Source: a virus
Strand: one strand, 5' to 3'
DNA: 64,000 bases
Virus record (IMG/VR): IMGVR_UViG_3300037189_026210
Span: 1-64,000 of that record
A program made the translations under genes and the position numbers. Positions 30,772-56,522 of this stretch are shown here, piece by piece. The notes beneath the pieces were generated by a model. That model was given only the letters and a program-made list of their open reading frames with translations, was not told the DNA's origin and made no database searches. Position 1 is the first letter of the stretch. Every line of letters begins with the position of its first letter.

Positions 30772-31167
30772 TTAAAATGGGACTTCTGAATCATCTTCTA
30801 CTGATTTTTGTTTTGTTGGCTTGCTTTCTTCTTTAGTAGAATTTTGCTCTCCTTTTTCTGCTTTAGATCCAACGTTAGAAAATCTAATTTCTTGAGCTTT
30901 TACAAAAATTTTAGTTTCTTTTTTTCCATCCTTTTCCCAAGAATCCATGCACAATCTTCCATCAACAATAATTCCAGATCCTTTTTTAAGCCATTTGCTT
31001 GCAAAATTAGCTTGATCGCCCCAAGCTTCACAATCAATATATACTGTATTTTTTTCTCTAAATGGATCATCAATAGCCAATCTTAATTTTGCCACAGATG
31101 AATCTTTCAATTGTTTAATCTCCACATCTTTAACGACGTTACCTATTAATATTACTTTGTTATACAT
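30772..31167 (-). CDS. ssb: Single-stranded DNA-binding protein
   Basis: The 131-residue protein has a bacterial-type OB fold at residues 1-105 (MYNKVILIGNVVKDVEI; AKLRLAID; KGSGIIVDGRL; ETKIFVKAQEI). This is followed by a flexible charged linker and the acidic tip DDSEVPF, the equivalent of the DDDIPF tip that recruits host repair and replication proteins. The start ATG overlaps the end of the sigma factor gene by eight bases. It coats single-stranded DNA during phage replication alongside the helicase, primase and polymerase at 46-54 kb. Confidence 0.93.
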   Translation of the reverse strand: MYNKVILIGNVVKDVEIKQLKDSSVAKLRLAIDDPFREKNTVYIDCEAWGDQANFASKWLKKGSGIIVDGRLCMDSWEKDGKKETKIFVKAQEIRFSNVGSKAEKGEQNSTKEESKPTKQKSVEDDSEVPF

Positions 31168-31735
31168 AGTTTATTTCTTTCTTTACTTCTTCTAAAAATT
31201 TATTGTGGATGTTTATACATCCTTGAATGCTAATGTCAATCTCTTTTGCAATTTTTTTCCAAGACATGGTTTTATTTCCGTTTCCTATTTTATATCTTAA
31301 TGATAAAATTTTATGAATTCTTTTATCTGGATTTTCTTTTGCAATTTCAAAAATTTTATTTAGTATTTCTTTTGATGAAATTTCATTAGTTTTATCAGAT
31401 TCAGAAAATCTAAAGTCTTCTTTATATTCTTCGATATCGTTATATTGATATTTTATCCCCCTATTGAATAAATTCAAACACTTCCATCTAGTTTCATTTC
31501 CAAGGTATGTTGAAAATTTTGCTTTTTTATTTGGATCAAAGTTTAATATTGCTTTATATATCGATATAAACTTGTCTTCTATTAAATCATTTTTATCAAG
31601 AAAGGTGCAGTTATTAGGTATAACTGAATTTACCATTTCTAAATAAATTCCAGAATGTCTTTCAATCAAAAGATTTAGACTGTTTGTGTCATTTTCTTTT
31701 TTTACTTTTTCTATTAAATTTAAATCGCTTTCCAT
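31160..31735 (-). CDS. Sigma-70 family RNA polymerase sigma factor
   Basis: The 191-residue protein has a sigma region 2 at about residues 20-90 (LIEDKFISIYKAILNFDPNKK, then KFSTYLGNETRWKCLNLF, the 2.3-2.4 part). A region 4 helix-turn-helix lies at about 125-187 (LSLRYKI ... MSWKKIAKEIDISIQGC). Regions 1.1 and 3 are missing, as in small alternative sigma factors. It overlaps the dNMP kinase by 16 bases and SSB by eight. It probably redirects host RNA polymerase to phage promoters, and the GTGTAAA element upstream of late genes is the best candidate target (inference). Confidence 0.82.
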   Translation of the reverse strand: MESDLNLIEKVKKENDTNSLNLLIERHSGIYLEMVNSVIPNNCTFLDKNDLIEDKFISIYKAILNFDPNKKAKFSTYLGNETRWKCLNLFNRGIKYQYNDIEEYKEDFRFSESDKTNEISSKEILNKIFEIAKENPDKRIHKILSLRYKIGNGNKTMSWKKIAKEIDISIQGCINIHNKFLEEVKKEINYV

Positions 31736-33289: not shown

Positions 33290-33317
33290 TTGACCGATAC
33301 ATTGTTTCGTGTAAAAT
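33290..33317 (+). promoter_or_regulatory. Sigma-70-type promoter for the ribonucleotide reductase operon
   Basis: TTGACC (33290-33295), 16-base spacer, then TAAAAT (33312-33317) preceded by GTG, giving an extended -10. The ATG of nrdB follows 12 bases later, so the leader would be about six bases with no Shine-Dalgarno sequence. Confidence 0.65.
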
Positions 33318-43074: not shown

Positions 43075-44127
43075 ATGAAAAAAGTATTAATAACAGGAAT
43101 TACTGGTCAAGACGGAAGTTTAATGGCTGAGTATCTTTTATGTAAATATCAAGATATAGAAGTATATGGCGCTCATAGGAGATTGAGTGTACCAAATCAT
43201 TCCAATATTCAACACTTAAAATCAAATCCAAGATTTAAAGTGGTTGAAATGGATGTTACAGATCCAGAAAGCGTAAACAATGTATTTGCTGAAATATTTC
43301 CAGAATATTTTATTAATTTTGCGGCTAATTCTTTTGTTGGCAATAGTTGGAAAATGCCAAGTAATCATATGCAAACAAATGCAATGGGTGTGCTTTATTG
43401 TCTTGAGGCAATTAAAAATATTAATCCAGAAACTAAATTTTATAACGCTGGAAGTTCAGAGCAATTTGGAGATGTGGATTATGCTCCGCAAGATATTAAA
43501 CATCCATTTAAGCCTAGATCTCCATATGGAGTTTCAAAATGCACAGCCCATCATTTGGTAAAAGTATATAGAGAGTCTTATAATATTTTTGCAGTTCAAG
43601 GAATTTTATTTAATCATGAAGGCGTTCGCAGAGGAGAGGAATTTGTAACTAGAAAAATTACAAAAAATGTAGCAAGAATACACAAGGCAATAAAAGAAGG
43701 AAAAACATTTGAGCCATTAAAACTCGGTAATATTTTATCACAAAGAGATTGGAGTGATGCTGAAGATTTTGTTCGCGGAGTATGGCTAATGCTAAATCAA
43801 GAAAAGCCAAAAGATTACGTACTCTCTTCAAATGAGACTCATACAATTAAAGAATTTGTCGAATTAGCATTCAAGCACGCAAAAATTGATGGCGAATGGA
43901 TTGGAGACGGAAAGAATAAAAAATATATTGTGCCAAATTATGTACATGATATTTCAGATATCAAAAGTAGCGTTTTAATGGAAATAGATTCTCAATTCTA
44001 CAGACCAGCAGAAGTTGATTTACTTCTTGGAGATTCAACGCCAGCAAGGGAAGAACTTGGATGGTTGCCAGAAACATCATTTCAAAAATTAGTAGAGAAA
44101 ATGGTAGACAACGACTTATCGTCATGA
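43075..44127 (+). CDS. gmd: GDP-mannose 4,6-dehydratase
   Basis: The 350-residue extended SDR protein has TGITGQDGS (7-15), NFAANSFVGNSWKMP (81-95), GSSEQFGDV (116-124) and YGVSK (151-155). It also has FNHEGVRRGEEFVTRK, RDWSDAEDFV and a C-terminal YRPAEVDLLLGD...ELGW segment, all diagnostic of Gmd. It converts GDP-D-mannose to GDP-4-keto-6-deoxy-D-mannose, the precursor of fucose, rhamnose, perosamine and C-methylated sugars. No reductase or aminotransferase that would complete such a pathway is in the window. The 3' end contains the promoter of the next operon. Confidence 0.95.
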   Translation: MKKVLITGITGQDGSLMAEYLLCKYQDIEVYGAHRRLSVPNHSNIQHLKSNPRFKVVEMDVTDPESVNNVFAEIFPEYFINFAANSFVGNSWKMPSNHMQTNAMGVLYCLEAIKNINPETKFYNAGSSEQFGDVDYAPQDIKHPFKPRSPYGVSKCTAHHLVKVYRESYNIFAVQGILFNHEGVRRGEEFVTRKITKNVARIHKAIKEGKTFEPLKLGNILSQRDWSDAEDFVRGVWLMLNQEKPKDYVLSSNETHTIKEFVELAFKHAKIDGEWIGDGKNKKYIVPNYVHDISDIKSSVLMEIDSQFYRPAEVDLLLGDSTPAREELGWLPETSFQKLVEKMVDNDLSS

Positions 44128-44133
44128 TATAAT
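44105..44133 (+). promoter_or_regulatory. Sigma-70-type promoter predicting a leaderless mRNA (recombination operon)
   Basis: TAGACA (44105-44110), 17-base spacer, perfect TATAAT (44128-44133), five bases, then ATG 44139. The -35 lies inside gmd, and the gmd stop TGA directly abuts the -10. The start codon falls at about +1 and no Shine-Dalgarno sequence is possible. Confidence 0.8.
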
Positions 44134-44138
44134 GCTTC

Positions 44139-44483
44139 ATGGCAAAAAAATTGAATAAAAAAAATTTGCTTAAGAAGTTTTTGGAAATCCCTAGATCTGC
44201 ATCTAGGGATTTTTATTCTCGTGAAATGAAGATGCTAAATTCTTTAATAGAAAGATATTCAGAAGAGTTTGTGTTTAAACTTAATTTTGCTAAAAAATTT
44301 GACAGCATGGCGGTTATTATATGTGACGCATTCAAGTTGGAGTTGGATAAAAAATTTAGAAACTTCAATTATGAAATTGATTTTTCAAAATATGAAATTT
44401 ATAAAGTTGATGGAAATAAGCATGGACAAGATTTAATCGTAAAAAGAAAAATTAAAACAATTAGAGATTTTTTAAATGGCTAA
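44139..44483 (+). CDS. Small basic protein preceding RecA-like gene, unknown
   Basis: The 114-residue Lys-rich protein has a likely helical middle (residues 25-70) and no recognised motif. The start is fixed by a TATAAT box five bases upstream. It overlaps the RecA-like gene by eight bases (ATGGCTAA-type), so translation is coupled. The basic character and partner suggest a DNA-binding accessory to recombination. This is inference. Confidence 0.6.
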   Translation: MAKKLNKKNLLKKFLEIPRSASRDFYSREMKMLNSLIERYSEEFVFKLNFAKKFDSMAVIICDAFKLELDKKFRNFNYEIDFSKYEIYKVDGNKHGQDLIVKRKIKTIRDFLNG

Positions 44484-45612
44484 AAAAGACGAAAAAATTA
44501 TTACTTCAAATGAAATTCTTTCAAATTTCTTGAAGACAAACAAAGAAGATCACTTCAATTTCGAGGAGGATTTTTCTTATAAGGTTTCGAGTGGATCTCT
44601 TCAGTTGGATCTGCATATGAATGGGGGATTTGGTCCAGGTCTTCACAGATTTTGTGGAATCAATGAAGGAGGTAAAACTTCTCAAGCTCTTGAGGTAATG
44701 AAGAACTTCCTTAAAACAGTTCCAAATGCCAAAGGATTTTACATTAAAGCTGAAGGTAGGCTTTCTCCAGAAATGAAAGAAAGATCTGGAGTGCCTTTTG
44801 TTTCTAATGCTGACGATTGGAATGTGGGAACTTGTTTTGTTTTTGAAAGCAATATCTACGAAACTGTCGTAGATGCAATGAGGTCTTTGGTTGCAAACAA
44901 TCAAGAAGGCATTAAATATTACTTTCTTCTTGATGCTGTAGATGGTCTTATTTCCAAATGCGATTTAGATAAAACATTCGAAGATTCAAATAAAGTTGCT
45001 GGAGGCGCTGTAATCGCTGCAAACTTCATGAAGCGCATGTCTATCGCCTTGGCAAAGAGAGGGCATATGGCAGTCTTTATATCGCAAGTGCGAGCCGATA
45101 TTAAACTAGATCCATACTCCAAAGCTCCAATCAGACAAACTTCTGCAACTGGAGGTAATGCACTTCTTCATTTTGCGAATTGGATTTTGGAATTTGAACC
45201 AAGATTCAATGGTGATATGATTCTTCAAGATCCAAATAATAAAAAAATAGATCTTGAAAAGAATCCTCCAATTGGACATTGGGCAAAAGTAACTGTAAAA
45301 AAATCTCCCAATGAGAAGACCAACTTAACAATTCCATATCCAATTAGGTATGGAAGAAAGAATGGTAATTCTATTTGGATAGAAAAGGAAATTGTGGACT
45401 TACTTTACGCTTGGGAATTTATGACTAGAAGTGGCGCATGGGTAAAACCTTCTGAAGAGTTTTTGGAACTAGTTAAAGAAGTGGGCATTGAAATTCCAGA
45501 AAACTTCTCTGGGGAAAAGGGTTTATTTAAATTCATTGAAGATAACTCAAATCTCTGTAAATTTTTAATCACTTACTTCAAAAATTCCATTAATGAAATT
45601 CAAAACGCTTGA
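44476..45612 (+). CDS. RecA/UvsX-like recombinase
   Basis: The 378-residue RecA-fold ATPase has Walker A GINEGGKT (61-68), an unusual but valid G-x4-GKT. Walker B is in YYFLLDAVDGL (about 147-157). A region MAVFISQVRADI corresponds to the RecA L1/motif C glutamine segment, followed by RQTSATGGNALLHFANWILEF, like the RecA/UvsX L2 region. It probably catalyses strand exchange for recombination-dependent replication. A nuclease gene overlaps its 3' end by 20 bases. Confidence 0.85.
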   Translation: MAKKDEKIITSNEILSNFLKTNKEDHFNFEEDFSYKVSSGSLQLDLHMNGGFGPGLHRFCGINEGGKTSQALEVMKNFLKTVPNAKGFYIKAEGRLSPEMKERSGVPFVSNADDWNVGTCFVFESNIYETVVDAMRSLVANNQEGIKYYFLLDAVDGLISKCDLDKTFEDSNKVAGGAVIAANFMKRMSIALAKRGHMAVFISQVRADIKLDPYSKAPIRQTSATGGNALLHFANWILEFEPRFNGDMILQDPNNKKIDLEKNPPIGHWAKVTVKKSPNEKTNLTIPYPIRYGRKNGNSIWIEKEIVDLLYAWEFMTRSGAWVKPSEEFLELVKEVGIEIPENFSGEKGLFKFIEDNSNLCKFLITYFKNSINEIQNA

Positions 45613-46000
45613 TGGAAAAGATAGAGTTGTTAAGAATCTAAAAGACTCACTTATTAAGTGGGATGGAAAAAGCAGAAGCAAGCTTCAGCAAGGAGTTAAA
45701 TTATTCTTAAAAAAGTATTGGCAAGGAGATGTAGTGTTCGAAGAAATGAGGGTAGCTGGCACTAGGTTATCCTTGGATTTTTATAACGCTAATAAAAAAA
45801 TAGCAATCGAAGTTCAGGGAGAGCAACATTTTAAATTTGTTCCTTTCTTCCATAATACTAGAGGAAGTTATTTAAAACAAATAAAAAGAGATGTAAAAAA
45901 GATAGAATTTTGCGAACTGAATCAGATTCAACTTATAGAGATTTTTCCAAACGATGAGTTAAGCAAAGAATATTTTGAAAATCTTGGAGTTTATTTATAG
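45593..46000 (+). CDS. PD-(D/E)XK-family endonuclease, Vsr/DUF559-like
   Basis: The 135-residue protein has the compact nuclease core with E50/E51, RLSLDFYN (D62), IAIEVQGEQH (E73-x-Q75, H79) and a C-terminal helix-strand IKRDVKKIEFCELNQIQLIEIF. This is the layout of Vsr-like and DUF559 endonucleases, where Gln replaces the usual Lys. Its position between RecA and helicase genes suggests a DNA repair or recombination junction role. Its stop TAG overlaps the next promoter element. Confidence 0.75.
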   Translation: MKFKTLDGKDRVVKNLKDSLIKWDGKSRSKLQQGVKLFLKKYWQGDVVFEEMRVAGTRLSLDFYNANKKIAIEVQGEQHFKFVPFFHNTRGSYLKQIKRDVKKIEFCELNQIQLIEIFPNDELSKEYFENLGVYL

Positions 46001-46008
46001 TGTAAATA
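46000..46008 (+). promoter_or_regulatory. GTGTAAATA motif five bases before ATG
   Basis: tagtgtaaata overlaps the nuclease stop codon and is followed by exactly five bases and ATG 46014. No -35 hexamer matches at 16-17 bases. The same arrangement occurs at 7479 and 53798. Confidence 0.45.
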
Positions 46009-46013
46009 AAAAT

Positions 46014-46301
46014 ATGGCCAAAAAGAAGGTAAAATTCAATAAATTTGAAATTCCAGAGAATTTTTTGAATACCTTGTATGAGCTAACTGGTTCAGAAAAT
46101 AAAAATAAAGGTTATATTGTTTGCTATATAGACGAAGATGGAAATGGTCAAATCAAACAAAAATTTGATTCTCAAGCTACGGAATTTGCTTTGACTAAAT
46201 TTTTAGAAATTTTCATGAACGATAATGCTGAAATGCACGGAATTGAATTTCAGGGAGATGCATTTGAGAATAATGACGGAGAAGACGAAGAAGAGGATTG
46301 A
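46014..46301 (+). CDS. Small acidic protein preceding DnaB helicase, unknown
   Basis: An in-frame ATG at 45975 lies inside the nuclease gene. The ATG at 46014 right after the GTGTAAATA element is preferred, giving 95 residues. The basic start MAKKKVKFNKFEIPENFLN leads to a helix-strand core and a strongly acidic tail (NNDGEDEEED). The stop TGA lies inside the TTGACA box of the helicase promoter. No family was recognised. The acidic tail could mimic DNA or contact replication proteins, but this is speculative. Confidence 0.6.
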   Translation: MAKKKVKFNKFEIPENFLNTLYELTGSENKNKGYIVCYIDEDGNGQIKQKFDSQATEFALTKFLEIFMNDNAEMHGIEFQGDAFENNDGEDEEED

Positions 46302-46325
46302 CAACGACTATGGTCATGCTATCAT
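46298..46325 (+). promoter_or_regulatory. Sigma-70-type promoter predicting a leaderless dnaB mRNA
   Basis: Perfect TTGACA (46298-46303), 16-base spacer, TATCAT (46320-46325), five bases, then ATG 46331. The upstream stop TGA is part of TTGACA. This fixes the helicase start at 46331, since the longer in-frame reading begins inside the -35. Confidence 0.8.
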
Positions 46326-46330
46326 TTGGT

Positions 46331-47848
46331 ATGATCTATTCTTATGAACTAGAAAAACAGCTTTTAGCTGGATTGATTAAAAATCCTAACTCTTTCATTG
46401 ACATTTGCTCTTTCGTTTCTGAAAGAGATTTTTATTCTGAAGATTCTGTCTTAAACAAGACTATCTTCACTGTCATCAAACAAGCAATAGAGAACGCTGA
46501 AGATGTTGATGATGTTATTATCGCCCAGAGAATCCAATCTCTGGGCTTGTCTTTTGAGGATAATATCAATGTAGCAGATTACATTCGCTCATTGGGAATG
46601 AGGAAGGTATCTGAATCCAGTACTGTTAAGGCCGCAAAGGAACTGAAGAAGTATACAATTCGTAGAGAAATCTACGAATCTTCCATAGACGTTGGAAGAA
46701 AAATGAAGACGATGGCTCCAGAAAGTTCTTATCTGGATATTGTTAATACTGCTGACAAGATCTATAACTCAAAAATAAATCATTACGAGATCGGTGCCGA
46801 TACTCCAGAAAATATCTATGAAGATATGGAGTCGGTTATTGAAGAGAGGGGTAATAATCCAATTAAAGAATTTGGCTTGATGGGTCCACACAAGAAGGTG
46901 AATGATATCTATGGATCTCTACTTCGCCCAGGCAATATAACCGTCATTGTTGCCAGATCTGGAGTTGGTAAAACCCAGTTTTGCATGGACTATTCGACCA
47001 AAGTCGCTGCGCAATACGATATACCAGTTCTTCACTTTGATAATGGAGAAATGAGTAGAGAGGAATTGATGATGCGTCAATGTACAGCCTTATCTGGAGT
47101 TCCAATGCATTTGCTAGAGAGTGGACAGTGGAGACAGTGCGGCGAAGCAGTTGTGGAGAAGGTTAGATCAGTTTGGCCAAAGGTAAAAAAGATGAAGTTC
47201 TTTTATTACAATGTTGGTGGAATGGATGTCGATGCAATGATCAATACTCTAAAAAGATTTTATTATTCTCAAGTTGGAAGGGGAAATAAGATGATTTTTA
47301 GTTTCGACTACATTAAAACTACATCAGAGAAAAGTGATAAAAATGAATGGCAAGTAGTCGGAGAAATGGTTGACAAGTTTAAAAAATGCATTCAAAAAGA
47401 AATGCTGATCGATGGAAAACCAATCATTCCGATGATTACATCAGTTCAAAGTAATCGAAGTGGGATCACAAACAATAGAAACTCACAAAATATTGTAGAC
47501 GATGAAAGCATTGTCTCGTTATCAGATAGGATTATTCAGTTTTGTTCTCATATGTTTATCTTGAGAAAGAAAACTACTGATGAAGTGCAGCAGGAAGCAA
47601 ATCAATTTGGCACTCACAAATTGATAAATATTAAAGCTAGACATTTGGGATCAGACTTGGTAGGAGCATTAGAGCCAGTTTTACTTGGCGACACTTTGAG
47701 AAATAATTTCATCAATCTAGAATTTAAAAATTTTGCTATCACAGAAAAGGGCGATTTGAGAGATGTCGTTCAATTCTTGAATGGTAGAGAAGACTTAGAT
47801 GATTCAGAATTTAACGGAAGATTAATACCAGATTTCAATGAACTCTAA
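46331..47848 (+). CDS. Replicative DNA helicase (DnaB-like)
   Basis: The start at 46331 yields 505 residues beginning MIYSYELEKQLLAGLIKNP, the usual DnaB opening. The N-terminal helical domain spans about 1-110. The RecA-like motor has Walker A ARSGVGKTQ (208-216), LHFDNGEMSREELMMR (motif H1a region) and a Walker B strand MIFSFDYIKT. The glutamine-type sensor is ITSVQSN, and the C-terminal arginine segment is INIKARHLGSD. It unwinds DNA at the fork and pairs with the adjacent primase, which overlaps it by 11 bases. Confidence 0.93.
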   Translation: MIYSYELEKQLLAGLIKNPNSFIDICSFVSERDFYSEDSVLNKTIFTVIKQAIENAEDVDDVIIAQRIQSLGLSFEDNINVADYIRSLGMRKVSESSTVKAAKELKKYTIRREIYESSIDVGRKMKTMAPESSYLDIVNTADKIYNSKINHYEIGADTPENIYEDMESVIEERGNNPIKEFGLMGPHKKVNDIYGSLLRPGNITVIVARSGVGKTQFCMDYSTKVAAQYDIPVLHFDNGEMSREELMMRQCTALSGVPMHLLESGQWRQCGEAVVEKVRSVWPKVKKMKFFYYNVGGMDVDAMINTLKRFYYSQVGRGNKMIFSFDYIKTTSEKSDKNEWQVVGEMVDKFKKCIQKEMLIDGKPIIPMITSVQSNRSGITNNRNSQNIVDDESIVSLSDRIIQFCSHMFILRKKTTDEVQQEANQFGTHKLINIKARHLGSDLVGALEPVLLGDTLRNNFINLEFKNFAITEKGDLRDVVQFLNGREDLDDSEFNGRLIPDFNEL

Positions 47849-48848
47849 AATTTATTCATCATTGGTCGAATTAGGCTATGAGCTTTCGGACTTTGGTAAT
47901 CACTGGAGAACTAAGGCTATTTATAGAGGTGGAGATAATCCTACTTCAGTAATGATCTATAAAGATACTGGAGTTTGGAAAGACTTTGTAGCCAATAAGG
48001 GCGCAATGCCATTCAAGAAACTTGTTGAATTAACGTTAAATACTACTGATTATTCAGTGATCAAGAAGTATATAGAAGATTATGCTGACTACAAAGCAGA
48101 AGAGCCAAAAGAAAAATTAGAGATGGAAAAAATTTATCCAGAAGAGTGTTTAAAAAAGCTTTTTTCAAACTATGCTTTTTATGAAAAGCGCGGCATTTCA
48201 CAATCTATCCAAATGATGTATAAATGCGGTTTAGCTTCTGCTGGAAGAATGTATAGACGAATTGTTTTTCCTATTTATAATCTAAATAATCAAATTTGTG
48301 GATTTAGTGGAAGAAAATTAGATGAAGACAAAGAAGCTCCAAAATGGAAGCATATTGGATCTAAAAATAATTGGGTTTATCCAGCCTGCATTCCCAATTT
48401 TCCAGAGATAAATGATGAAGTGATACTTGTCGAAAGTATTGGAGATAGCATGGCTCTAACTCAAAATGGCTATGAGAACAATTTAGTAATGTTTGGACTA
48501 GACTGTAGCAACGCTTTAATAAATTTCTTAATTTCCAAGAATTTAAAATCTATTTATATATCAAATAATAATGACTCTTCAAGTGAGAAAAATAGAGGCT
48601 TGATTTCATCAATCAAGGCTTTCATTAAACTTTCTTCATATTTTGATCTTGACATTTTAAAAATTAAACCTCCATTATTAAATGATTTTGGAGAAATGCA
48701 GCAGTCAGAAAATTCACTTTTATTTTGCGAGTGGAACAAAAGAGAATCTTTATCAATTAAAGATATCTTGAAGTTCGTAAAGGAAAATGAATCAGAATTC
48801 AACAAAACAAAGTTAACAAAATTTTATAAAAAATGTCTGAACGAGTAA
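47838..48848 (+). CDS. DnaG-like DNA primase lacking the zinc finger cysteines
   Basis: The 336-residue protein has an N-terminus (FGNHWRTKAIYRGGDNPTSV ... GVWKDFV) with the strand order of the CHC2 zinc-ribbon domain but none of its Cys or His ligands. The catalytic core follows: FYEKRGISQSI, GLASAGRMYRRIVFPIYNLNNQICGFSGRKL (about 130-165), and a TOPRIM domain with ILVESIGDSMAL (E199). The second metal motif reads NNND (243-246) instead of DxD, so one acidic ligand is replaced by Asn. It overlaps both dnaB and the next nuclease gene. Confidence 0.82.
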   Translation: MNSKIYSSLVELGYELSDFGNHWRTKAIYRGGDNPTSVMIYKDTGVWKDFVANKGAMPFKKLVELTLNTTDYSVIKKYIEDYADYKAEEPKEKLEMEKIYPEECLKKLFSNYAFYEKRGISQSIQMMYKCGLASAGRMYRRIVFPIYNLNNQICGFSGRKLDEDKEAPKWKHIGSKNNWVYPACIPNFPEINDEVILVESIGDSMALTQNGYENNLVMFGLDCSNALINFLISKNLKSIYISNNNDSSSEKNRGLISSIKAFIKLSSYFDLDILKIKPPLLNDFGEMQQSENSLLFCEWNKRESLSIKDILKFVKENESEFNKTKLTKFYKKCLNE

Positions 48849-49837
48849 CGCTATCTGCAAGTAGGATCAAAACAGCTCAATCTTGCAGCTGGCTTTACTG
48901 GTTCAAGTATATTCTTAAAGCTCCAGACAAAAGCAATGATGGAGCAAAAAGAGGCACTATATGCCATCTAGTTTTCGAATTGCTCGGAGATGAAAAAGAA
49001 AAAAAGAACTATGAAAAAATCATAGAAAAACAAGATGTCTTTGCAAGTGCAAAAGTTAAAAAACTTATATTAACAGAAGCCAAGAATTCAAACGTCGATG
49101 ATCAAGAAAATCTTGATTTAATTAAAAAGATGACGCTGAATGGATTGAATTACGATTTCTTCGGCGAATCAATGGGAGAAATAGATGAGTCATTCTCCGA
49201 AAGAGATTTTGACTTTGATGTTGATGACGGAGAAGTTTCGTATAAAACAAAAGGATTTATCGATAAACTTTTTATTAAAAATGAAAAAGCAATTATTAGA
49301 GATTTTAAATCAAGCAAAGATGTGTTTAAGGGAAAAGATTTAGAAGATAATCTACAAGATCTGATGTATACTTTGGCGGTAAGAAAACTTTTTCCAAAAC
49401 TAAAAAAGATTTATAGTGAGTTTGTATTTTTGAAATTCTCTCCAGAGAAAGGTGTTATAAAAATGTCGCCCGTATCGGATGAAGAATTGAGAGGATTTGA
49501 ATATCAATTAACTTCAATCCAAAAATACTTGGACAATTTCAATGAAAAGATCGCGATGAAAAATTTTGCTGCAAAAGCGGACTTCCCTAAAGATAATTCT
49601 TTTGGGGGACCGCTGCTTTGTGGGTACGCTAAATCTGCGGACGAGAAAAAAGTAGATGGATCTCCTAAATGGTTTTGTCCAGCCAAATTTGCTTTTGAGT
49701 TTTATCAAATTAAAAAAGACGGCAAGATTGTGGACTCCTGTTTCATTAAAGAGAAAAAAGAATATGAAAAGAAGTATGCCGAACATGAATTCTTACTTTT
49801 TAAGTATGAGGGATGTCCTGCTCACAAAAAGCGTTGA
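48833..49837 (+). CDS. RecB/Cas4-type PD-(D/E)XK nuclease with possible Fe-S cluster
   Basis: The 334-residue protein opens with SASRIKTAQSCSWLYWFKYI (8-27) and has GTICHLVFE (H45), GFIDKLFI (D144), IIRDFKSSK (D157-x-K159) and QDLMYTLA, the ordered motifs of the PDDEXK_1 / RecB-type nuclease family. C18 with C263, C282 and C328 are spaced as in Cas4 and AddB, where four Cys hold a 4Fe-4S cluster. It probably processes DNA ends for recombination. The stop TGA lies within the -35 box of the next promoter. Confidence 0.8.
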   Translation: MSERVTLSASRIKTAQSCSWLYWFKYILKAPDKSNDGAKRGTICHLVFELLGDEKEKKNYEKIIEKQDVFASAKVKKLILTEAKNSNVDDQENLDLIKKMTLNGLNYDFFGESMGEIDESFSERDFDFDVDDGEVSYKTKGFIDKLFIKNEKAIIRDFKSSKDVFKGKDLEDNLQDLMYTLAVRKLFPKLKKIYSEFVFLKFSPEKGVIKMSPVSDEELRGFEYQLTSIQKYLDNFNEKIAMKNFAAKADFPKDNSFGGPLLCGYAKSADEKKVDGSPKWFCPAKFAFEFYQIKKDGKIVDSCFIKEKKEYEKKYAEHEFLLFKYEGCPAHKKR

Positions 49838-49861
49838 CATTTAAGATTAATCATCCATACT
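49834..49861 (+). promoter_or_regulatory. Sigma-70-type promoter predicting a leaderless polymerase-operon mRNA
   Basis: Perfect TTGACA (49834-49839), 16-base spacer, CATACT (49856-49861), six bases, then ATG 49868. It has the same geometry as the dnaB promoter, and again the upstream stop TGA sits inside the -35 hexamer. Confidence 0.75.
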
Positions 49862-49867
49862 CGATTC

Positions 49868-50638
49868 ATGATACCTATCTTTAAGTCAAACTTTTCCATA
49901 GGAAAAAGTATACTGACATTAGATGCTCCAGAGTCTTGCCCAGATGAAGATGCAGCAGATTCAATTTTACAGATAGTTAAGGAAAATAATTTATCTCAAC
50001 TTGTTCTTGTCGAAGACTCGATGATTGGTTTTTTGGAAGCTCACAAGGCTGCAAAAAATTTAAATATTCATTTAGTTTATGGTTTAAGAATAAATTGCTG
50101 CAACGATGTCTCTGATGAGAAAAAAGAGCAATCAAAACATAAAATTATTATCTTTGCAAAAGATGACAATGGCTGTAAATTGTTAAATAAAATTTATTCC
50201 AAAGCATTTTGTGATCATTCTGGATATGTTGACTGTAAAATATTAATGGAGCTTTGGAATGAAAGTTCATTGAAATTAGCAATTCCATTTTATGACTCTT
50301 ACGTCCATAATAACAGCTTTGGATTTGGAACTTGTTTGCCTAACTTTATTTTCACTAGTCCACATTATTTCATCGAGCGTAATCATCTACCTTTTGATTC
50401 GTTGCTCGAAAGACAAATAAGCGAAATGACAAAAGATCCGATTTTAGTAAAAACAATTCTTTATAAGAATAAAAAAGATGTTTTTGCATTTCAAACTTAC
50501 AAATGTCTAACTAATAGATCGTTTGGAAAGGAATCTTCATTATCAAGTCCAAATTTAAACCATTTTGGATCTGATGAATTTTGCTGGGAAAGCTTCTTAG
50601 AAGAAAGTAAAAAATATGGAAGACCTGCTACGGTTTAA
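49868..50638 (+). CDS. DNA polymerase III alpha PHP-domain protein (separate gene, metal ligands lost)
   Basis: The 256-residue protein follows the N-terminal PHP domain of DnaE step by step. LVEDSMIGFLEAHKAAKNLNIHLVYGLRI (about 46-74) corresponds to the TDHGxMxGxxEFYxAxKxxGIKPIIGxE segment. KIIIFAKDDNGCKLLNKIYSKAF (about 90-112) corresponds to the LAKNxxGYxNLxxLxSxAY segment. KKDVFAFQTYKCLTNRSFG matches the end of the domain. The HxH, TDHG and E ligand positions are all replaced, so PHP phosphatase or nuclease activity is unlikely. It probably acts as a scaffold for the polymerase core encoded two genes downstream. Confidence 0.75.
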   Translation: MIPIFKSNFSIGKSILTLDAPESCPDEDAADSILQIVKENNLSQLVLVEDSMIGFLEAHKAAKNLNIHLVYGLRINCCNDVSDEKKEQSKHKIIIFAKDDNGCKLLNKIYSKAFCDHSGYVDCKILMELWNESSLKLAIPFYDSYVHNNSFGFGTCLPNFIFTSPHYFIERNHLPFDSLLERQISEMTKDPILVKTILYKNKKDVFAFQTYKCLTNRSFGKESSLSSPNLNHFGSDEFCWESFLEESKKYGRPATV

Positions 50639-51245
50639 ATTTGATCAAAAGTATTTAATTCTCGATACTGAAACTGAAGGTCTTAATTTAGTGTCTTCAA
50701 GACCTTGGCAAGTTTCATGGATCACTGCTCAAGGAAAAACGATCAAATCTAAAAATGATAGATTTGTCAAATGGCCTAATCTAAACGTTAGTCCAGATGC
50801 CGCAAGAATAACTGGATTTAATCAATTTGATTACGAATCTAAAGCCGAAGATCCCCTAAAGGTTCTAAAAGATTTATGGTCAGTTATAACTGATCCAAGC
50901 TACATAATTGTCGGACAAAACTTACTTAATTTTGATGTTTATATTTTAAATGTTTTGCGAAAGCATTGCAATTTAAATTGTGATTATTCTTATGTTCATA
51001 GGATTCTAGACACCAGAGCATTGGCAATGTCTATCGCTATGGGCAACAAAGATATTGACAAGAATGATATTTTAACACAGTATAAATACATCTCTCATCG
51101 AGATAAAAAAATCAAAACAAGTCAAGCTGCATTATTGAAACAGTACGAAATTGAGCATGATCCATCAAAGTTACATAACGCTCTTTACGATATTGAGATG
51201 ACGTTCAAAATCTTCTTAAGGCAAATACAAGAAATTAATATTTAA
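50616..51245 (+). CDS. DEDDh 3'-5' exonuclease, proofreading subunit-like
   Basis: The 209-residue protein has all five DEDDh residues: D17-x-E19 (LILDTETEGL), D107 (NLLNFDVYIL), H187 and D192 (LHNALYDIE). The fold order matches DnaQ/PolC-type proofreading exonucleases. It overlaps the PHP gene by 23 bases and ends immediately before the polymerase core gene. Gene order PHP, exonuclease, polymerase therefore mirrors the domain order of PolC. It probably proofreads for the phage replicase. Confidence 0.88.
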   Translation: MEDLLRFKFDQKYLILDTETEGLNLVSSRPWQVSWITAQGKTIKSKNDRFVKWPNLNVSPDAARITGFNQFDYESKAEDPLKVLKDLWSVITDPSYIIVGQNLLNFDVYILNVLRKHCNLNCDYSYVHRILDTRALAMSIAMGNKDIDKNDILTQYKYISHRDKKIKTSQAALLKQYEIEHDPSKLHNALYDIEMTFKIFLRQIQEINI

Positions 51246-53798
51246 ATGTTCTCAGATTTTCAAAAATATCAAAGCCCAACTGCTGCTGGGGTTCTTTTGC
51301 CAAAAATTAAAATTGAAGATAAATATTACAAGATGTTGAGTACTCCAAACTCAATATCAAATTATGACTTTTTAAGACGGCTGGCATTCAAAGGAGTTAA
51401 AGATAAAAAAATTGATTCTTTTGAAAATAAACAGGAATATTATGATAGGGCAAAAACTGAATTAACGATTCTTGAAGATCTTGGTTTTATTGATTATATT
51501 CTATTAAACTGGGATATTTTAAATTTTTGCCATGAGAATGAAATTCCTACTGGTGCTGGACGAGGTAGTGCAGCGGGAAGTTTAATTTTATATCTTATTG
51601 GTGTAACTAAAGTAGACCCTATTAAATATGGATTATTCTTTGAAAGATTTGTTTCTAAAAGTCGTGCAAGAAAAATCGTCGATAATAATGTTGTTTATCT
51701 TGACGGTTCTCTGCTTGCGGATGTTGACAACGATATTGCTTACGAAAGAAGAAAAGAGGTTATCCAATATATTGAAAACAAATTTAAAGGTAAAACGTGC
51801 AAAATTCTTACGATGAACACATTGAGCGGAAAGCTCTGTATTAAAGAATGTGGTAAAATCGTTGGAGAATTAGAAGAATCAAAAGTCAATGAAGTTAGCG
51901 AATCTATTCCTAAAAAATTTGGCAAAGTAGCTCCATTAACTCAAGCCTTTCAAGAAAGCGATAAGTTTAGAGAGTTCTGTAATGAACATCCAATGGTTTA
52001 TGCGGTAGCTAGAAAACTTGAAAATTTAAATAAAAATACTGGAGTGCATCCTTCTGGTATTGCAATTTCTCATGATGAATTGACAGATTTAATGCCAGTT
52101 CAAAAAACTGGAGATGGCGATTTAGTTTCTGGATACGATATGAATAACGTATCAGAACTAACGGTTAAATTTGATATTCTTGGATTAAGAACTCTTTCAG
52201 TATTACAAGATGTCTGCAAACAAACTGGAGTAAATTTGATGGATATTGATTTGTCTTCAAATTTAATTTATGACTATTTAAAAGATCTTCAGAACCCACA
52301 AGGATTATTTCAAATTGAAGCAGATACAAACTTTAGAGTTTGCCAAAAGGTTAAACCAAGAAGTCTCGAAGAATTATCTGCAGTAGTTGCTATTGCTCGT
52401 CCAGGTGCTTTAGAATTTTTACAAAATTATGCGACTTATATTGAAAGTGGAAACTTTCAAAGCGTCAATCCATTCTTTGATGAAGAACTCTCCTATACTG
52501 GAGGAATTCCACTATATCAAGAACAATTGATGAAAATGGCCGTTAAGGTTGGTTTTACATTAGATGAATCTGAGCAGTTGAGACGAATTGTCGGTAAAAA
52601 GAAAGTCGATCAAATTGAAGCTTGGAAACAAAAAATTGAAGACAAAATAAAAGAAAACAATTTGACAGAAGAAATCGGCAATGTTCTCTGGAAGGTTGCA
52701 GAAGATAGCGCTAACTATAGCTTTAATAAATCGCATAGTATTTCTTATGCAATTCTTGCAGCATGGACAGTTTACCTTAAGTTTAATTATCCAAAAGAGT
52801 TTTTCTTGAGCCTCCTCAAATCAACTCAATACGAACCAGATCCCCATGAAGAAATATCAAAGATCTCAAAAGAATTGATATACTTTGATATGAGATTACT
52901 GGCACCAGACTTAATTAAATCTGATTCTGATTTCAAAATTGAAAATCGTGACATAAGATACGGTTTGAATTCAATCAAGGGAATATCTACCAAAGTGCTG
53001 GAATCGTTAATTGATTTTAGGCAAAATAGTTTTTCAAATAAATATGATTTATTTATTGCTGCAAAAGAGTCTGGTTTAAATATAGGGGCTCTGTCAGCAT
53101 TGATTCAAGCTGGAGCTTTAGATAGCCTTTCAAGCGATAGATGCAGATTGGTATTGGAGGCTCAGACCTTTAATATTCTTACTGATAGAGAGAAAATACA
53201 ATTTGTTAATATTGGATCAATATATAACTTTGATATTCTTAATTCTATAAAAGACGTTGTGTCGAAAGATATGATTGGAGATGATAATAAAAAAATCATG
53301 ACCCCTAAAAGATTTGAGACTTTCAAAAAGAAATACGAGCCATATAAGGAAATCTACGAAAAAAATATCAAACATCATAAATTCGCTAATTGGTTCTTTG
53401 AAAAGAAACTCCTTGGTTATAGTTACTCTTATAACATTCGAGATATCTTTAAAGATTCTGATGATAAAAGATTCACTAGTAGTCTAGAATTTAGGGCTAC
53501 CGAGAACAACTCTAACATTAGAGTAGTTGGATGGGTTTCAGAAGCAGAGAAAAGAACTAGTCGCAATCAAAACAAATACTTGAAAATAAATCTTCAAGAT
53601 GAACTGGGATCAATAACGGGTATGCTAATGGATGGAAGGGATAACAAAATGACTCAATATTTTGAAAATGGTGGGAAAATACCAAAAGAGGATAGCGTAG
53701 TAGTATTGACAGGTCGAAAATCAAACGATACAATGTTCTTGGACAATCTTTTCATTTTGGATGAGAAGATTTATATGAAATTGTCTGAATTGAAATAG
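51246..53798 (+). CDS. DNA polymerase III alpha subunit, polymerase core without PHP domain
   Basis: The 850-residue C-family polymerase has GAGRGSAAGSL (103-113) in the palm, catalytic D159-x-D161 (LLADVDNDI) and third Asp D310 (VKFDILGLRTL). It also has the fingers segment GGIPLYQEQLMKMA, FNKSHSISYAILAAWT, helix-hairpin-helix YGLNSIKGISTKVLESLI, and a C-terminal OB fold (IRVVGWVSEAEKR ... LGSITGML, about 755-800). All three catalytic Asp are kept. The N-terminal PHP part found in cellular DnaE is encoded separately at 49868. It synthesises phage DNA. No clamp or clamp loader gene is in the window. Confidence 0.92.
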   Translation: MFSDFQKYQSPTAAGVLLPKIKIEDKYYKMLSTPNSISNYDFLRRLAFKGVKDKKIDSFENKQEYYDRAKTELTILEDLGFIDYILLNWDILNFCHENEIPTGAGRGSAAGSLILYLIGVTKVDPIKYGLFFERFVSKSRARKIVDNNVVYLDGSLLADVDNDIAYERRKEVIQYIENKFKGKTCKILTMNTLSGKLCIKECGKIVGELEESKVNEVSESIPKKFGKVAPLTQAFQESDKFREFCNEHPMVYAVARKLENLNKNTGVHPSGIAISHDELTDLMPVQKTGDGDLVSGYDMNNVSELTVKFDILGLRTLSVLQDVCKQTGVNLMDIDLSSNLIYDYLKDLQNPQGLFQIEADTNFRVCQKVKPRSLEELSAVVAIARPGALEFLQNYATYIESGNFQSVNPFFDEELSYTGGIPLYQEQLMKMAVKVGFTLDESEQLRRIVGKKKVDQIEAWKQKIEDKIKENNLTEEIGNVLWKVAEDSANYSFNKSHSISYAILAAWTVYLKFNYPKEFFLSLLKSTQYEPDPHEEISKISKELIYFDMRLLAPDLIKSDSDFKIENRDIRYGLNSIKGISTKVLESLIDFRQNSFSNKYDLFIAAKESGLNIGALSALIQAGALDSLSSDRCRLVLEAQTFNILTDREKIQFVNIGSIYNFDILNSIKDVVSKDMIGDDNKKIMTPKRFETFKKKYEPYKEIYEKNIKHHKFANWFFEKKLLGYSYSYNIRDIFKDSDDKRFTSSLEFRATENNSNIRVVGWVSEAEKRTSRNQNKYLKINLQDELGSITGMLMDGRDNKMTQYFENGGKIPKEDSVVVLTGRKSNDTMFLDNLFILDEKIYMKLSELK

Positions 53799-53806
53799 TG
53801 TAAAAT
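53798..53806 (+). promoter_or_regulatory. GTGTAAAAT motif overlapping polymerase stop, before Clp gene
   Basis: tagtgtaaaat overlaps the polymerase stop codon TAG. If TAAAAT is a -10 hexamer, transcription would begin near 53813, exactly at the second in-frame ATG of the Clp gene rather than the first (53807). Confidence 0.45.
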
Positions 53807-56218
53807 ATGGAGATGGAAAAATATAATCTTGTTCCTAGAGTTAAAAAAGTTATTGAGTCGGCCATAGAATTAGGTAATAAATATAAACATAAAAAAATAA
53901 ATAATGCCCATATATTATGCGCCATACTAGAACATGCGTCTTTGCCAATTAAAGCTGTTTTTTCAAACTTTAAAATAAATAATGATGGTTTAAAAAAATC
54001 ATTACTATTGGAACTTCCAGTAGCTGAACCTAATTTATTTTTAAGAGAAGATGATGAAGATTGGTGGAGTTCAGATATCGAACAAGCTCTAAAATCTTCT
54101 TTTAAATTATCAAAAAGTTTGGGCCATGAATTCATAGGTATTGAACATTTAACATACTCAATACTTAAGAATGATAAAGTTTTAAATAAATTTTTATTAT
54201 TTAAAGAGTTTCCATTAGATGAAATTGCAGAAGCAGTAATTAATCTTTTAGATCCAAATGAAAAATCATCATCTGATAAAAAAAATGAAGAAAGTGAAAA
54301 TTTAAATGAAGAGAAATTTGAAAAAAAATTCTGTACAAAATATTGCCATAATCTAAATGATTCAGTACTCAAATACGAATGTAAAATTGAAGGTAGGGAC
54401 GAAGAGATTTCAAAACTAATAGAAATCTTATCTTGTAAAATTAAAAATAATGCTATATTAGTTGGCGAAGCTGGAGTTGGAAAAACTGCAATTGTAGAAA
54501 GATTAGCTCAAATAATTAATGCAAATGAGTGTCCAATTTTCTTTTCTGGCTATAAGATTTATTCTTTAGATCTTGGATTAATGGTAGCTGGTACAAAGTA
54601 TAGGGGTCAATTTGAAGAACGATTCAAAGGTCTTATGGAAGAATTAAAAGAAGACAAACAATCAATTTTATTTATCGACGAGATTCATTCTATAGTTGGG
54701 GCTGGATCTACAGAAGGATCGTTGGATTTAGCAAATATGATTAAACCCGCCTTAGCGAGAGGTGAAATCAAATGTATAGGCGCAACAACCCAAGCAGAAT
54801 ATAAAAAATATTTTGAAAAAGATTCCGCTTTAAATAGAAGGTTCCAAGTCATTAATATTGAAGAGCCTAATAAAAAACAAACTTTTGAAATTCTAAAAAA
54901 GGCTAAAGACTCTTATGAAACATTTCATGGAGTTACTTATGACGATTTAATTATTGATAAAATTATTACTTTATCTGAAAAATATATGCCTTATAGAAAA
55001 TTTCCAGATAAAGCTTTTGATATTTTGGATAGGATAGGAGCAAAAGGAAAAATTCAAAAATTTGAAGTTCCCCAAAATTTAAAAAACAAAGAAAGTGAAA
55101 TAATTGATTCAATGGAAAAGTTTGATCTTTCTTTGCAAGAGAATAAAGATAAATGCGAAAAAATGCTTAGAAGTTTCTTAACTAAAAGGAATGCTTGGAT
55201 AAAAAAAACAGCAAATTCAGTTTTTACAATTAATGAACAGCATATTTTAGAAATATTCTCTAAGATTAGTGGGCTAAATGTAGATAAAATAAAAACAGAA
55301 TGTACGGATAATTTCTTATCGTTAAAAGAAGAAATTGAATCAAAAATATTTGATCAGTCGCAAGTAATAAATAAAATTTATGAAGTTCTTTTGTGCGCAA
55401 AAGCGGGAATAAAAAAAACAAAAAAAACAATAGCTAATTTTTTATTTATTGGTTCGACGGGAGTCGGTAAAACGTATACAGCTAAAGTTATAGCTGAAAA
55501 ATTCTACAATAAACCAAACTCATTTCTCCAAATAGATATGGCAGAATATGTTGACAAGAATTCAATATCTAAATTAATTGGAGCAACAGCAGGATACGTT
55601 GGATATGAAGAAGGTGGTCTTTTATCCGAGTTTGTTCGCAATAATCCATTTTCTTTAATTCTTTTTGATGAGGTTGAAAAAGCTCATCCAGATATAGTTA
55701 ATATTTTATTAAAAATCATGGACGAAGGATCAATTGTGGACAACTTTAGCCGTAAGATTGATTTTTCTAACACTATAATTGTGTTAACTGGAAATATTGG
55801 TGCAGAAACTGAAACGACGCGCTCAATGGGCTTTGTGAATCTACAGTCAGCCGAAAATAGAAACAATGATTACGAAAAAGCAGTAAAGAAACAATTTAAA
55901 CCAGAATTAATATCAAGACTCGATGAAATTTTAGTATTCAATAGTAAATTTTCAAAAGAAGGTTTATTTAAAATGATTTCAGAAACAATTTCCGAAATTC
56001 AAGACTCCCTAAAGAATAAAGATATAAAATTAGAAACTTCAAATGAAATTAAAAATTATTTATATTCTTTGATTGAAAAAGAAGGTAATAATGCAAGATC
56101 AGTACAAAAAATATTAAAAAATAATTTTGAATTGCCGCTATGCAAATTTTTAGTTTCGAATCAAAATTTAAATAAAATTTCTCTAAAATTAGTTGACAAT
56201 GATATCTGCTTCATGTAG
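53807..56218 (+). CDS. ClpA/ClpC-type AAA+ unfoldase
   Basis: The 803-residue protein (801 if it starts at ATG 53813) has a Clp N domain at about 1-150 (HILCAILEH; GIEHLTYSIL). AAA1 has Walker A GEAGVGKT (220-227) and Walker B FIDEIH (D291-E292). A short helical connector follows, without the long ClpB coiled coil. AAA2 has GSTGVGKT (549-556) and FDEVEKAHP (D621-E622). In AAA2 the loop RSMGFVNL places MGF (674-676) where ClpA and ClpC carry the [LIV]G[FL] ClpP-docking tripeptide. No clpP gene is in the window, so it may use host ClpP. Targets are unknown. Confidence 0.9.
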   Translation: MEMEKYNLVPRVKKVIESAIELGNKYKHKKINNAHILCAILEHASLPIKAVFSNFKINNDGLKKSLLLELPVAEPNLFLREDDEDWWSSDIEQALKSSFKLSKSLGHEFIGIEHLTYSILKNDKVLNKFLLFKEFPLDEIAEAVINLLDPNEKSSSDKKNEESENLNEEKFEKKFCTKYCHNLNDSVLKYECKIEGRDEEISKLIEILSCKIKNNAILVGEAGVGKTAIVERLAQIINANECPIFFSGYKIYSLDLGLMVAGTKYRGQFEERFKGLMEELKEDKQSILFIDEIHSIVGAGSTEGSLDLANMIKPALARGEIKCIGATTQAEYKKYFEKDSALNRRFQVINIEEPNKKQTFEILKKAKDSYETFHGVTYDDLIIDKIITLSEKYMPYRKFPDKAFDILDRIGAKGKIQKFEVPQNLKNKESEIIDSMEKFDLSLQENKDKCEKMLRSFLTKRNAWIKKTANSVFTINEQHILEIFSKISGLNVDKIKTECTDNFLSLKEEIESKIFDQSQVINKIYEVLLCAKAGIKKTKKTIANFLFIGSTGVGKTYTAKVIAEKFYNKPNSFLQIDMAEYVDKNSISKLIGATAGYVGYEEGGLLSEFVRNNPFSLILFDEVEKAHPDIVNILLKIMDEGSIVDNFSRKIDFSNTIIVLTGNIGAETETTRSMGFVNLQSAENRNNDYEKAVKKQFKPELISRLDEILVFNSKFSKEGLFKMISETISEIQDSLKNKDIKLETSNEIKNYLYSLIEKEGNNARSVQKILKNNFELPLCKFLVSNQNLNKISLKLVDNDICFM

Positions 56219-56221
56219 TAT
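56193..56221 (+). promoter_or_regulatory. Sigma-70-type promoter inside the end of the Clp gene
   Basis: Perfect TTGACA (56193-56198), 17-base spacer, TAGTAT (56216-56221), nine bases, then ATG 56231. The Clp stop TAG forms the first half of the -10. A leader of only about three bases is predicted. Confidence 0.75.
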
Positions 56222-56230
56222 CTTGTGTAT

Positions 56231-56449
56231 ATGAGAACCAGAAATACTACAACTAGCAAAAGAACGACAGCTCTATTTGACCGTATTGCAAATACTGCGG
56301 GTCGTTTTTTTGGAGTAACCCTGCAGAATGGTGAACGCATTAATGCCCAATATCGCAGCCAATCGGAGCGATATTTGGTAGTTTATGATCGTAATCAAGC
56401 TCGCAACCGTCGCCTCCTAAAAACCAATGTTAGTGCAGCCACTGTCTAA
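56231..56449 (+). CDS. Small basic protein, possible phage/plasmid-type conserved family
   Basis: The start at ATG 56231 is preferred over GTG 56225 because of promoter spacing, giving 72 residues. The pattern GRFFGVTLQNGERINAQYRSQ ... YLVVYDRNQARNRRLLKTNVSAA resembles a small family seen in phages and bacteria with GKFFxVTFxKxDG and YLxVYDxxxxGYR segments, probably a compact beta-barrel. It is strongly basic (Arg-rich) with higher GC than its neighbours, consistent with a nucleic-acid binder. Own promoter and terminator make it a single-gene transcription unit. Confidence 0.65.
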   Translation: MRTRNTTTSKRTTALFDRIANTAGRFFGVTLQNGERINAQYRSQSERYLVVYDRNQARNRRLLKTNVSAATV

Positions 56450-56470
56450 TAATTAAATTAGGTTAATTTA

Positions 56471-56503
56471 AACCCCGTCAAGTTTACTTGACGGGGTTTT
56501 TAT
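56471..56503 (+). terminator. Strong rho-independent terminator
   Basis: The stem CCCCGTCAAG / CTTGACGGGG (56473-56482 with 56487-56496) is ten perfect pairs with loop TTTA. TTTTT-ATTT follows. Confidence 0.93.
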
Positions 56504-56508
56504 TTATA

Positions 56509-56517
56509 ATGTAATAT
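56509..56517 (+). promoter_or_regulatory. ATGTAATAT motif five bases before ATG
   Basis: TTTATAATGTAATAT directly after the terminator is followed by five bases and ATG 56523. It is a variant of the GTGTAAA element and the only one whose core reads TAATAT. Confidence 0.4.
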
Positions 56518-56522
56518 ATAGA

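What the first reader, a model, noticed from the sequence alone, without database searches (positions are those of the whole stretch)
44105..56231. Family of sigma-70-type promoters positioned to make leaderless mRNAs
Four plus-strand promoters (44105, 46298, 49834, 56193) and one minus-strand promoter (33151-33124) have TTGACA-like and TATNNT-like hexamers 16-17 bases apart. The start codon comes only 5, 5, 6, 9 and 7 bases after the -10. Transcription would begin at or within about three bases of the start codon, leaving no room for a Shine-Dalgarno site. The first genes are a small basic protein (recA operon), dnaB, the PHP subunit, another small basic protein and the dUTPase operon leader. 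Genes inside operons often do have AGGA-type sites, so the two modes coexist. The phage may rely on leaderless initiation for early gene expression.
Basis: partly seen in the sequence, partly recalled or inferred. Interest (0 to 1): 0.75.

Follow-up and report, generated by a model that had tools for sequence, protein, structure and literature searches.

The report
Phage promoters making leaderless messenger RNAs
A widespread group of uncultured viruses of bacteria places its promoters so close to the first gene of each replication operon that the messenger RNA should begin at the start codon, with no room for the usual ribosome-binding site, and this layout is conserved across dozens of distantly related viral genomes.

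Summary
All five promoters are at the stated positions. In the 71 kb phage record, 6 of 57 gene starts have a TTGACA/TATAAT-type promoter ending 4-10 bases before the start codon; dinucleotide shuffles give 0.49 (maximum 3 in 300 runs) and shifted windows 0.22. Across 80 related IMG/VR loci, TTGACA peaks sharply 34-36 bases before ATG, and the -10 ends 5-9 bases (mode 6) before it. The sites recur at the same genes: PHP 62/80 loci, the 44139 gene 29/54, the 56231 gene 28/45, dnaB 22/72, and 17 of 18 dUTPase loci. Genes inside operons almost never have one (0/76, 0/67, 0/73, 0/74). With standard sigma-70 geometry, transcription would start on or within about 3 bases of the start codon. Shine-Dalgarno sites are nearly absent in the family, so the claim that operon genes often have them is weak; operon genes abut or overlap instead. 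The mechanism is known (a -10 element adjacent to the ORF), so this is a new, strongly conserved instance. The host is unresolved: Patescibacteria are compatible, but MAG binning conflicts. No 5'-end data exist.

The parts
44105..44133 (+). Leaderless-type promoter TAGACA-17-TATAAT (TG before the -10), 5 bases from ATG 44139 (small protein heading the recA/HNH operon)
   Evidence: same architecture at 29 of 54 related loci
44139..44483 (+). Small protein, 114 aa, no family match; first gene of the RecA-like operon
46298..46325 (+). Leaderless-type promoter TTGACA-16-TATCAT, 5 bases from ATG 46331; its -35 contains the TGA stop of the upstream gene
   Evidence: 22 of 72 related loci
46331..47848 (+). 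DnaB-like replicative helicase (DnaB N and C domains)
49834..49861 (+). Leaderless-type promoter TTGACA-16-CATACT, 6 bases from ATG 49868; its -35 contains the TGA stop of the upstream gene
   Evidence: 62 of 80 related loci
49868..50638 (+). PHP-domain protein heading the PHP/exonuclease/DnaE operon
   Evidence: PHP 26.0 bits, just under the 26.4 cut-off; conserved across the family
51246..53798 (+). DnaE-like DNA polymerase III alpha subunit, used to find relatives; operon-internal gene with no conserved promoter of its own
   Evidence: 3 of 84
56193..56221 (+). Leaderless-type promoter TTGACA-17-TAGTAT, 9 bases from ATG 56231
   Evidence: 28 of 45 related loci
56231..56449 (+). Small protein, 72 aa, no family match (scanned from 56234)
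56470..56517 (+). Terminator-like hairpin (56470-56499) overlapping a compact promoter TTGACG-18-TAATAT (56488-56517), 5 bases from ATG 56523
   Evidence: 13 of 24 related loci have a promoter there, often with TTGAAA in the hairpin loop
33124..33151 (-). Leaderless-type promoter TTGACT-16-TATCTT, 7 bases from GTG 33116 (100-aa leader gene of the dUTPase operon)
   Evidence: 17 of 18 loci L243-L260 have a promoter 6-9 bases before the leader gene
33290..33317 (+). Divergent promoter TTGACC-16-TAAAAT, 12 bases from ATG 33330 (ribonucleotide reductase small chain); very short leader rather than strictly leaderless here
   Evidence: 4 of 5 related loci have d = 6-7
31160..31735 (-). Sigma-factor-like protein in the dUTPase operon; candidate regulator of a later promoter class
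   Evidence: Sigma70_r2, 23.6 bits, cut-off 24; phrog_351, E=6.6e-10

Best explanation
The replication and nucleotide-metabolism operons of this phage clade are driven by host sigma-70-type promoters fused to the start codon of the first gene. The -10 element ends 5-9 bases (mode 6) before ATG/GTG, so RNA polymerase, which normally starts about 7 bases after the -10, begins the transcript on or within about 3 bases of the start codon. The mRNA is leaderless and is presumably started by a ribosome (70S, or 30S-fMet-tRNA) binding the 5'-terminal AUG without Shine-Dalgarno pairing. Downstream genes have neither promoter nor, mostly, a Shine-Dalgarno site and overlap or abut (-23 to +13 bases), so they are probably translated by coupling or re-initiation. 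Shown: the sequence architecture, its position enrichment, conservation, operon-head restriction and the rarity of Shine-Dalgarno motifs. Inferred: the actual start sites, the mode of initiation, use of host sigma-70, and early timing.
For: TTGACA peak at -34 to -36 from ATG in 1,176 genes of the family. Histogram of -10-to-ATG distance: 107 sites at d=5-9 in several gene families, near zero at most other distances. 95 of 1,015 distinct upstream regions have the promoter, against 4-19 in shuffles and a mean of 9.9 in shifted windows. Same genes in divergent relatives: PHP 62/80, 44139 gene 29/54, 56231 gene 28/45, dnaB 22/72, RNR small chain 4/5, dUTPase-operon leader 17/18. Operon-internal genes: 0/76, 0/67, 0/73, 0/74, 1/60, 1/64, 1/81, 3/84. 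Codons right after the ATG are conserved (MIP.F in PHP, MIYS in DnaB), so the start codons are very likely correct. Only 30 of 100 promoters have the upstream gene's TGA inside TTGACA, so stop codons do not explain the -35. Shine-Dalgarno-like motifs precede about 5% of starts. TA-like signals about 12 bases before the start are taken as the sequence signature of leaderless genes (PMC3160421), and a -10 motif adjacent to the ORF is reported as an experimentally validated leaderless promoter in Deinococcus (PMC12340547).
Against: No 5'-end mapping exists, and start-site choice in the unknown host could shift. dnaB has the strict promoter in only about 30% of relatives. Some -10 hexamers are weak (CATACT, TAGTAT). 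The genomes are related, so sequence counts are not independent events. The 33330 promoter has d=12, which would leave a leader of a few bases. One relative (L084) has an AGGAG-type site before its PHP gene.
Confidence: 0.87

Rival explanations
1. Chance: AT-rich sequence before start codons gives TATNNT-like hexamers near ATG, and TTGACA-like hexamers turn up at random.
For: Promoter-like matches as such are not enriched in the region, and the exact TTGACA/TATNNT pattern occurs only twice in the genome, as in the reversed control.
Against: Position enrichment in the record itself (6 against 0.49), the family-wide register of TTGACA at -34 to -36, and conservation at orthologous operon heads but not operon-internal genes.
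Confidence: 0.02
2. The promoters are real, but transcription starts further upstream or at several sites, so the RNAs carry short leaders and are translated by another Shine-Dalgarno-independent route such as A-rich or unstructured 5' ends.
For: No RNA data; d varies from 5 to 12; some starts lack any promoter.
Against: A -10 element ending 6 bases before ATG fixes the start near the ATG by standard sigma-70 geometry, and few other aligned promoters were found within 60 bases upstream of family genes.
Confidence: 0.08
3. The conserved TTGAC reflects the TGA stop codon of the upstream gene rather than a -35 element.
For: In 30 of 100 distinct promoters the TGA inside TTGACA is the upstream gene's stop, including the window sites 46298 and 49834.
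Against: 70 of 100 have no such overlap; the hexamer extends to TTGAC(A/T) and keeps 16-18 bases to a -10.
Confidence: 0.02

Closest known systems
Bacterial leaderless genes with a TANNNT -10 box about 12 bases before the start (Actinobacteria, Deinococcus-Thermus; PMC3160421, PMC12340547)
   Same: A -10 element directly upstream of the start codon, no leader, no Shine-Dalgarno site
   Different: Here it is in a phage clade, with a well-conserved TTGACA-type -35, and concentrated at operon heads of replication and nucleotide genes
Leaderless phage transcripts such as lambda cI (PMC3160421 says leaderless initiation was found in lambda phage; PMC5312081 states that phage transcripts are often leaderless)
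   Same: Phage mRNA beginning at the AUG
   Different: As known to me, lambda cI is one maintenance transcript; here many operons share the architecture and it is conserved across a large uncultured clade
Leaderless transcripts of Thermus phages (from memory, not tested here)
   Same: As I recall, several phage operons make leaderless RNA
   Different: Different phages and hosts; I did not read that work here
Mycobacterial leaderless transcripts (title and abstract of PMC4633059, not read in full)
   Same: Leaderless expression as a common mode in a bacterium
   Different: Cellular genes of mycobacteria, not an uncultured phage clade

Membership tests
Leaderless gene with a -10 motif adjacent to the ORF | TANNNT-like -10 element about 6-12 bases before the start codon | tested here: met
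   d=5-9 at the five sites (one with C at the first -10 position); family-wide peak with mode 6
Leaderless gene with a -10 motif adjacent to the ORF | No Shine-Dalgarno site between promoter and start | tested here: met
   no room for one; SD-like motifs in leaderless-promoter genes are not above control windows (10% against 3-21%)
Leaderless gene with a -10 motif adjacent to the ORF | 5' end of the mRNA at the start codon | not testable with these tools
   needs 5'-end mapping in infected host cells
Sigma-70-type promoter | TTGACA and TATAAT hexamers 16-18 bases apart | tested here: met
   95 distinct sites: TTGAC(A/T) and TATNNT, spacer 16-18; hexamer matches were also the selection criterion, so the register relative to ATG is the independent part
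Host is a member of the Patescibacteria | Consistent presence of family contigs in MAGs of one phylum | tested here: inconclusive
   family contigs in one Patescibacteria (Woesebacteria) MAG, one Flavobacteriaceae MAG and one Lokiarchaeota MAG; tetranucleotide profiles undecided
Host is a member of the Patescibacteria | Host genome itself shows the leaderless promoter signal | tested here: inconclusive
   present in some genomes (G003, G110), absent in others (G119); TTGACW-N16/17-TATNNT-N5/7-ATG 405 against 301 for the d=20-22 control over 145 genomes

The most novel reading that the evidence does not exclude
A cosmopolitan clade of uncultured phages runs its replication programme almost without Shine-Dalgarno sites: leaderless initiation at the head of each operon and translational coupling within it. 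This copies the leaderless mode of Patescibacteria hosts, so the promoter layout could help assign hosts to such phages.
Probability: 0.3. Interest if true: 0.7.

Novelty: new member of a known kind. Interest (0 to 1): 0.5.

Why it matters
It extends leaderless expression from isolated phage genes and a few bacterial phyla to the core replication operons of a widespread uncultured phage clade, with a built-in internal control (operon heads against internal genes). It gives a sequence-only way to predict transcript starts in phages that cannot be cultured. In some Patescibacteria genomes the same signal sits before up to about a third of sampled genes, which is worth testing and might help in host assignment.

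Tried and rejected
A shared operator in the 44105 and 46298 promoters (GACAACGACT....GTCATG) was considered; a strict search found only the 44105 site in the window and nothing in IMG/VR, so it was not pursued. GTGTAAA as a candidate late promoter motif: not enriched overall (8 found, 8.7 expected). Recoded stop codons in relatives: the apparent in-frame TGA in the L084/G001 PHP match lies at the end of the open frame, not inside it. Host from MAG binning: conflicting. Host from tetranucleotides: undecided. Flavobacteriaceae show no sign of this pattern: 164 hits at d=5-7 against 155 at d=20-22 in 61 genomes, and start codons in the one Flavobacteriaceae MAG sampled have Shine-Dalgarno sites but no TANNNT peak, so such a host looks unlikely but is not excluded. 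Cultured relatives: none close in INPHARED.

Full report
Setting. The window is 64,000 of the 71,164 bases of an uncultured virus record, 31% G+C. Genes around the sites encode a RecA-like protein, an HNH endonuclease, DnaB, a DnaG-like primase, an exonuclease (phrog_69), a PHP protein, an RNase T-type exonuclease, DnaE and a Clp-like AAA protein; dUTPase, a nucleotide-kinase-like protein, a sigma-like protein and SSB lie on the minus strand near 31-33 kb, and ribonucleotide reductase diverges from them. No close cultured relative was found by tblastn with DnaE, RNR, a structural protein or PHP.

The sites. Reading the DNA confirms all five. The distance d from the end of the -10 to the start codon is 5, 5, 6, 9 and 7. 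A scan of the whole record finds a sixth at 56523 (d=5, overlapping a terminator hairpin) and a near case at the RNR gene 33330 (d=12). Six of 57 gene starts have a promoter with d=4-10; 300 dinucleotide shuffles give a mean of 0.49 and a maximum of 3; shifted windows give 0.22. The total number of promoter-like matches in the region is not above chance: the signal is in position, not number.

Conservation. A DnaE search gave 80 related IMG/VR loci, 96% to 60% identical. In 1,176 predicted genes of these loci and the window TTGACA peaks at -34 to -36 from ATG and the -10 ends 5-9 bases before ATG, mode 6. Counting distinct upstream regions only, 95 of 1,015 have such a promoter against 4-19 in shuffles and 9.9 on average in shifted windows; a few shifted windows reach 17-27, probably because single gene families carry a second aligned site. 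By gene: PHP 62 of 80, the 44139 gene 29 of 54, the 56231 gene 28 of 45, the 56523 gene 13 of 24, dnaB 22 of 72, RNR small chain 4 of 5; operon-internal genes 0 of 76, 0 of 67, 0 of 73, 0 of 74, 1 of 60, 1 of 64, 1 of 81, 3 of 84. Those per-gene counts accept any in-frame ATG/GTG near the N terminus, the same rule for operon heads and internal genes. Two further searches, with the sigma-like protein and with dUTPase, gave 18 loci, of which 17 have a promoter 6-9 bases before a ~100-aa leader gene. Residues straight after the ATG are conserved, so the start codons are very likely right.

Shine-Dalgarno sites. In genes with a leaderless-type promoter SD-like motifs are not above control windows; in other family genes 8% against 5-10%; in the window 11% against about 5%. 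With another motif set 52 of 1,134 family starts have one, and a modest peak before the start remains visible. So two modes may coexist, but the second is minor. Genes inside operons overlap or abut, from -23 to +13 bases, which suggests translational coupling (inference).

Mechanism. Standard sigma-70 geometry puts the start about 7 bases after the -10, that is on the A of ATG when d=6. TA-like signals about 12 bases before the start are taken as the signature of leaderless genes in bacteria (PMC3160421), and a -10 motif adjacent to the ORF is reported as validated by experiment in Deinococcus (PMC12340547). In 30 of 100 distinct promoters the TGA of TTGACA is also the stop codon of the upstream gene, including 46298 and 49834, an economy of space but not the cause of the -35.

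Host. A GTDB scan found family members in three MAGs, labelled Flavobacteriaceae, Lokiarchaeota and Woesebacteria; the first and last each hold two or more such contigs, so binning cannot decide. In the Woesebacteria MAG, contigs other than the recognised phage ones show TATAAT peaking at -15 to -11 and promoters at d=6-10, alongside Shine-Dalgarno sites. Another Patescibacteria genome, G110, has TANNNT starting at -12 to -10 before 46 of 137 genes, against about 14 per bin elsewhere; G119 shows none; the Flavobacteriaceae MAG shows Shine-Dalgarno sites only. Over 145 Patescibacteria the d=5-7 pattern exceeds the d=20-22 control 405 to 301; over 61 Flavobacteriaceae it does not, 164 to 155 (per-genome counts were copied by hand from those tables). 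Patescibacteria are therefore compatible, not shown. Library searches for leaderless expression in Patescibacteria or CPR found no paper that treats it; that covers open-licence papers only.

Verdict. Observation confirmed; main interpretation supported by sequence and conservation; direct RNA evidence lacking; mechanism known; distribution and conservation in this clade appear to be new.

Noticed in passing
window 31160-31735 (-): Sigma-factor-like protein in the dUTPase operon (phrog_351 E=6.6e-10; Sigma70_r2 just under its cut-off); only one IMG/VR relative was found (77% identity, in the contig with 96% DnaE identity). It may serve a later promoter class.
   Followed up: partly
window 45593-46000: HNH-type endonuclease gene between recA-like and dnaB regions kept in most relatives (50-57% identity in MAG contigs); its fixed place suggests a replication or recombination role rather than a mobile homing enzyme.
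   Followed up: no
window 56470-56523 and the same place in relatives: Terminator hairpin and leaderless-type promoter overlap, with the -35-like hexamer in or next to the hairpin loop and the -10 just after the T-run.
   Followed up: partly
window 46298, 49834 and relatives: The upstream gene's TGA stop codon is embedded in the TTGACA of the next promoter in 30 of 100 distinct cases.
   Followed up: yes
window 701, 33309, 35977, 46000, 53798: GTGTAAA lies 9-21 bases before five gene starts, although the motif is not enriched overall; possibly part of another promoter class.
   Followed up: partly
window gene starts 10759 (+), 7447 (-), 7141 (-), 60178 (-): Several structural or other genes have AAGGA/AAGGT-type sites before the start, unlike the replication genes.
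   Followed up: no
L197, L199, L202 (G003) and L084, L304 (G001): Two GTDB MAGs each contain several contigs of this phage clade, so these bins are partly phage; neither label can be taken as the host.
   Followed up: partly
L261-L270 (G110): A Patescibacteria genome with TANNNT 10-12 bases before about a third of sampled genes, suggesting common leaderless expression in some of that phylum.
   Followed up: partly
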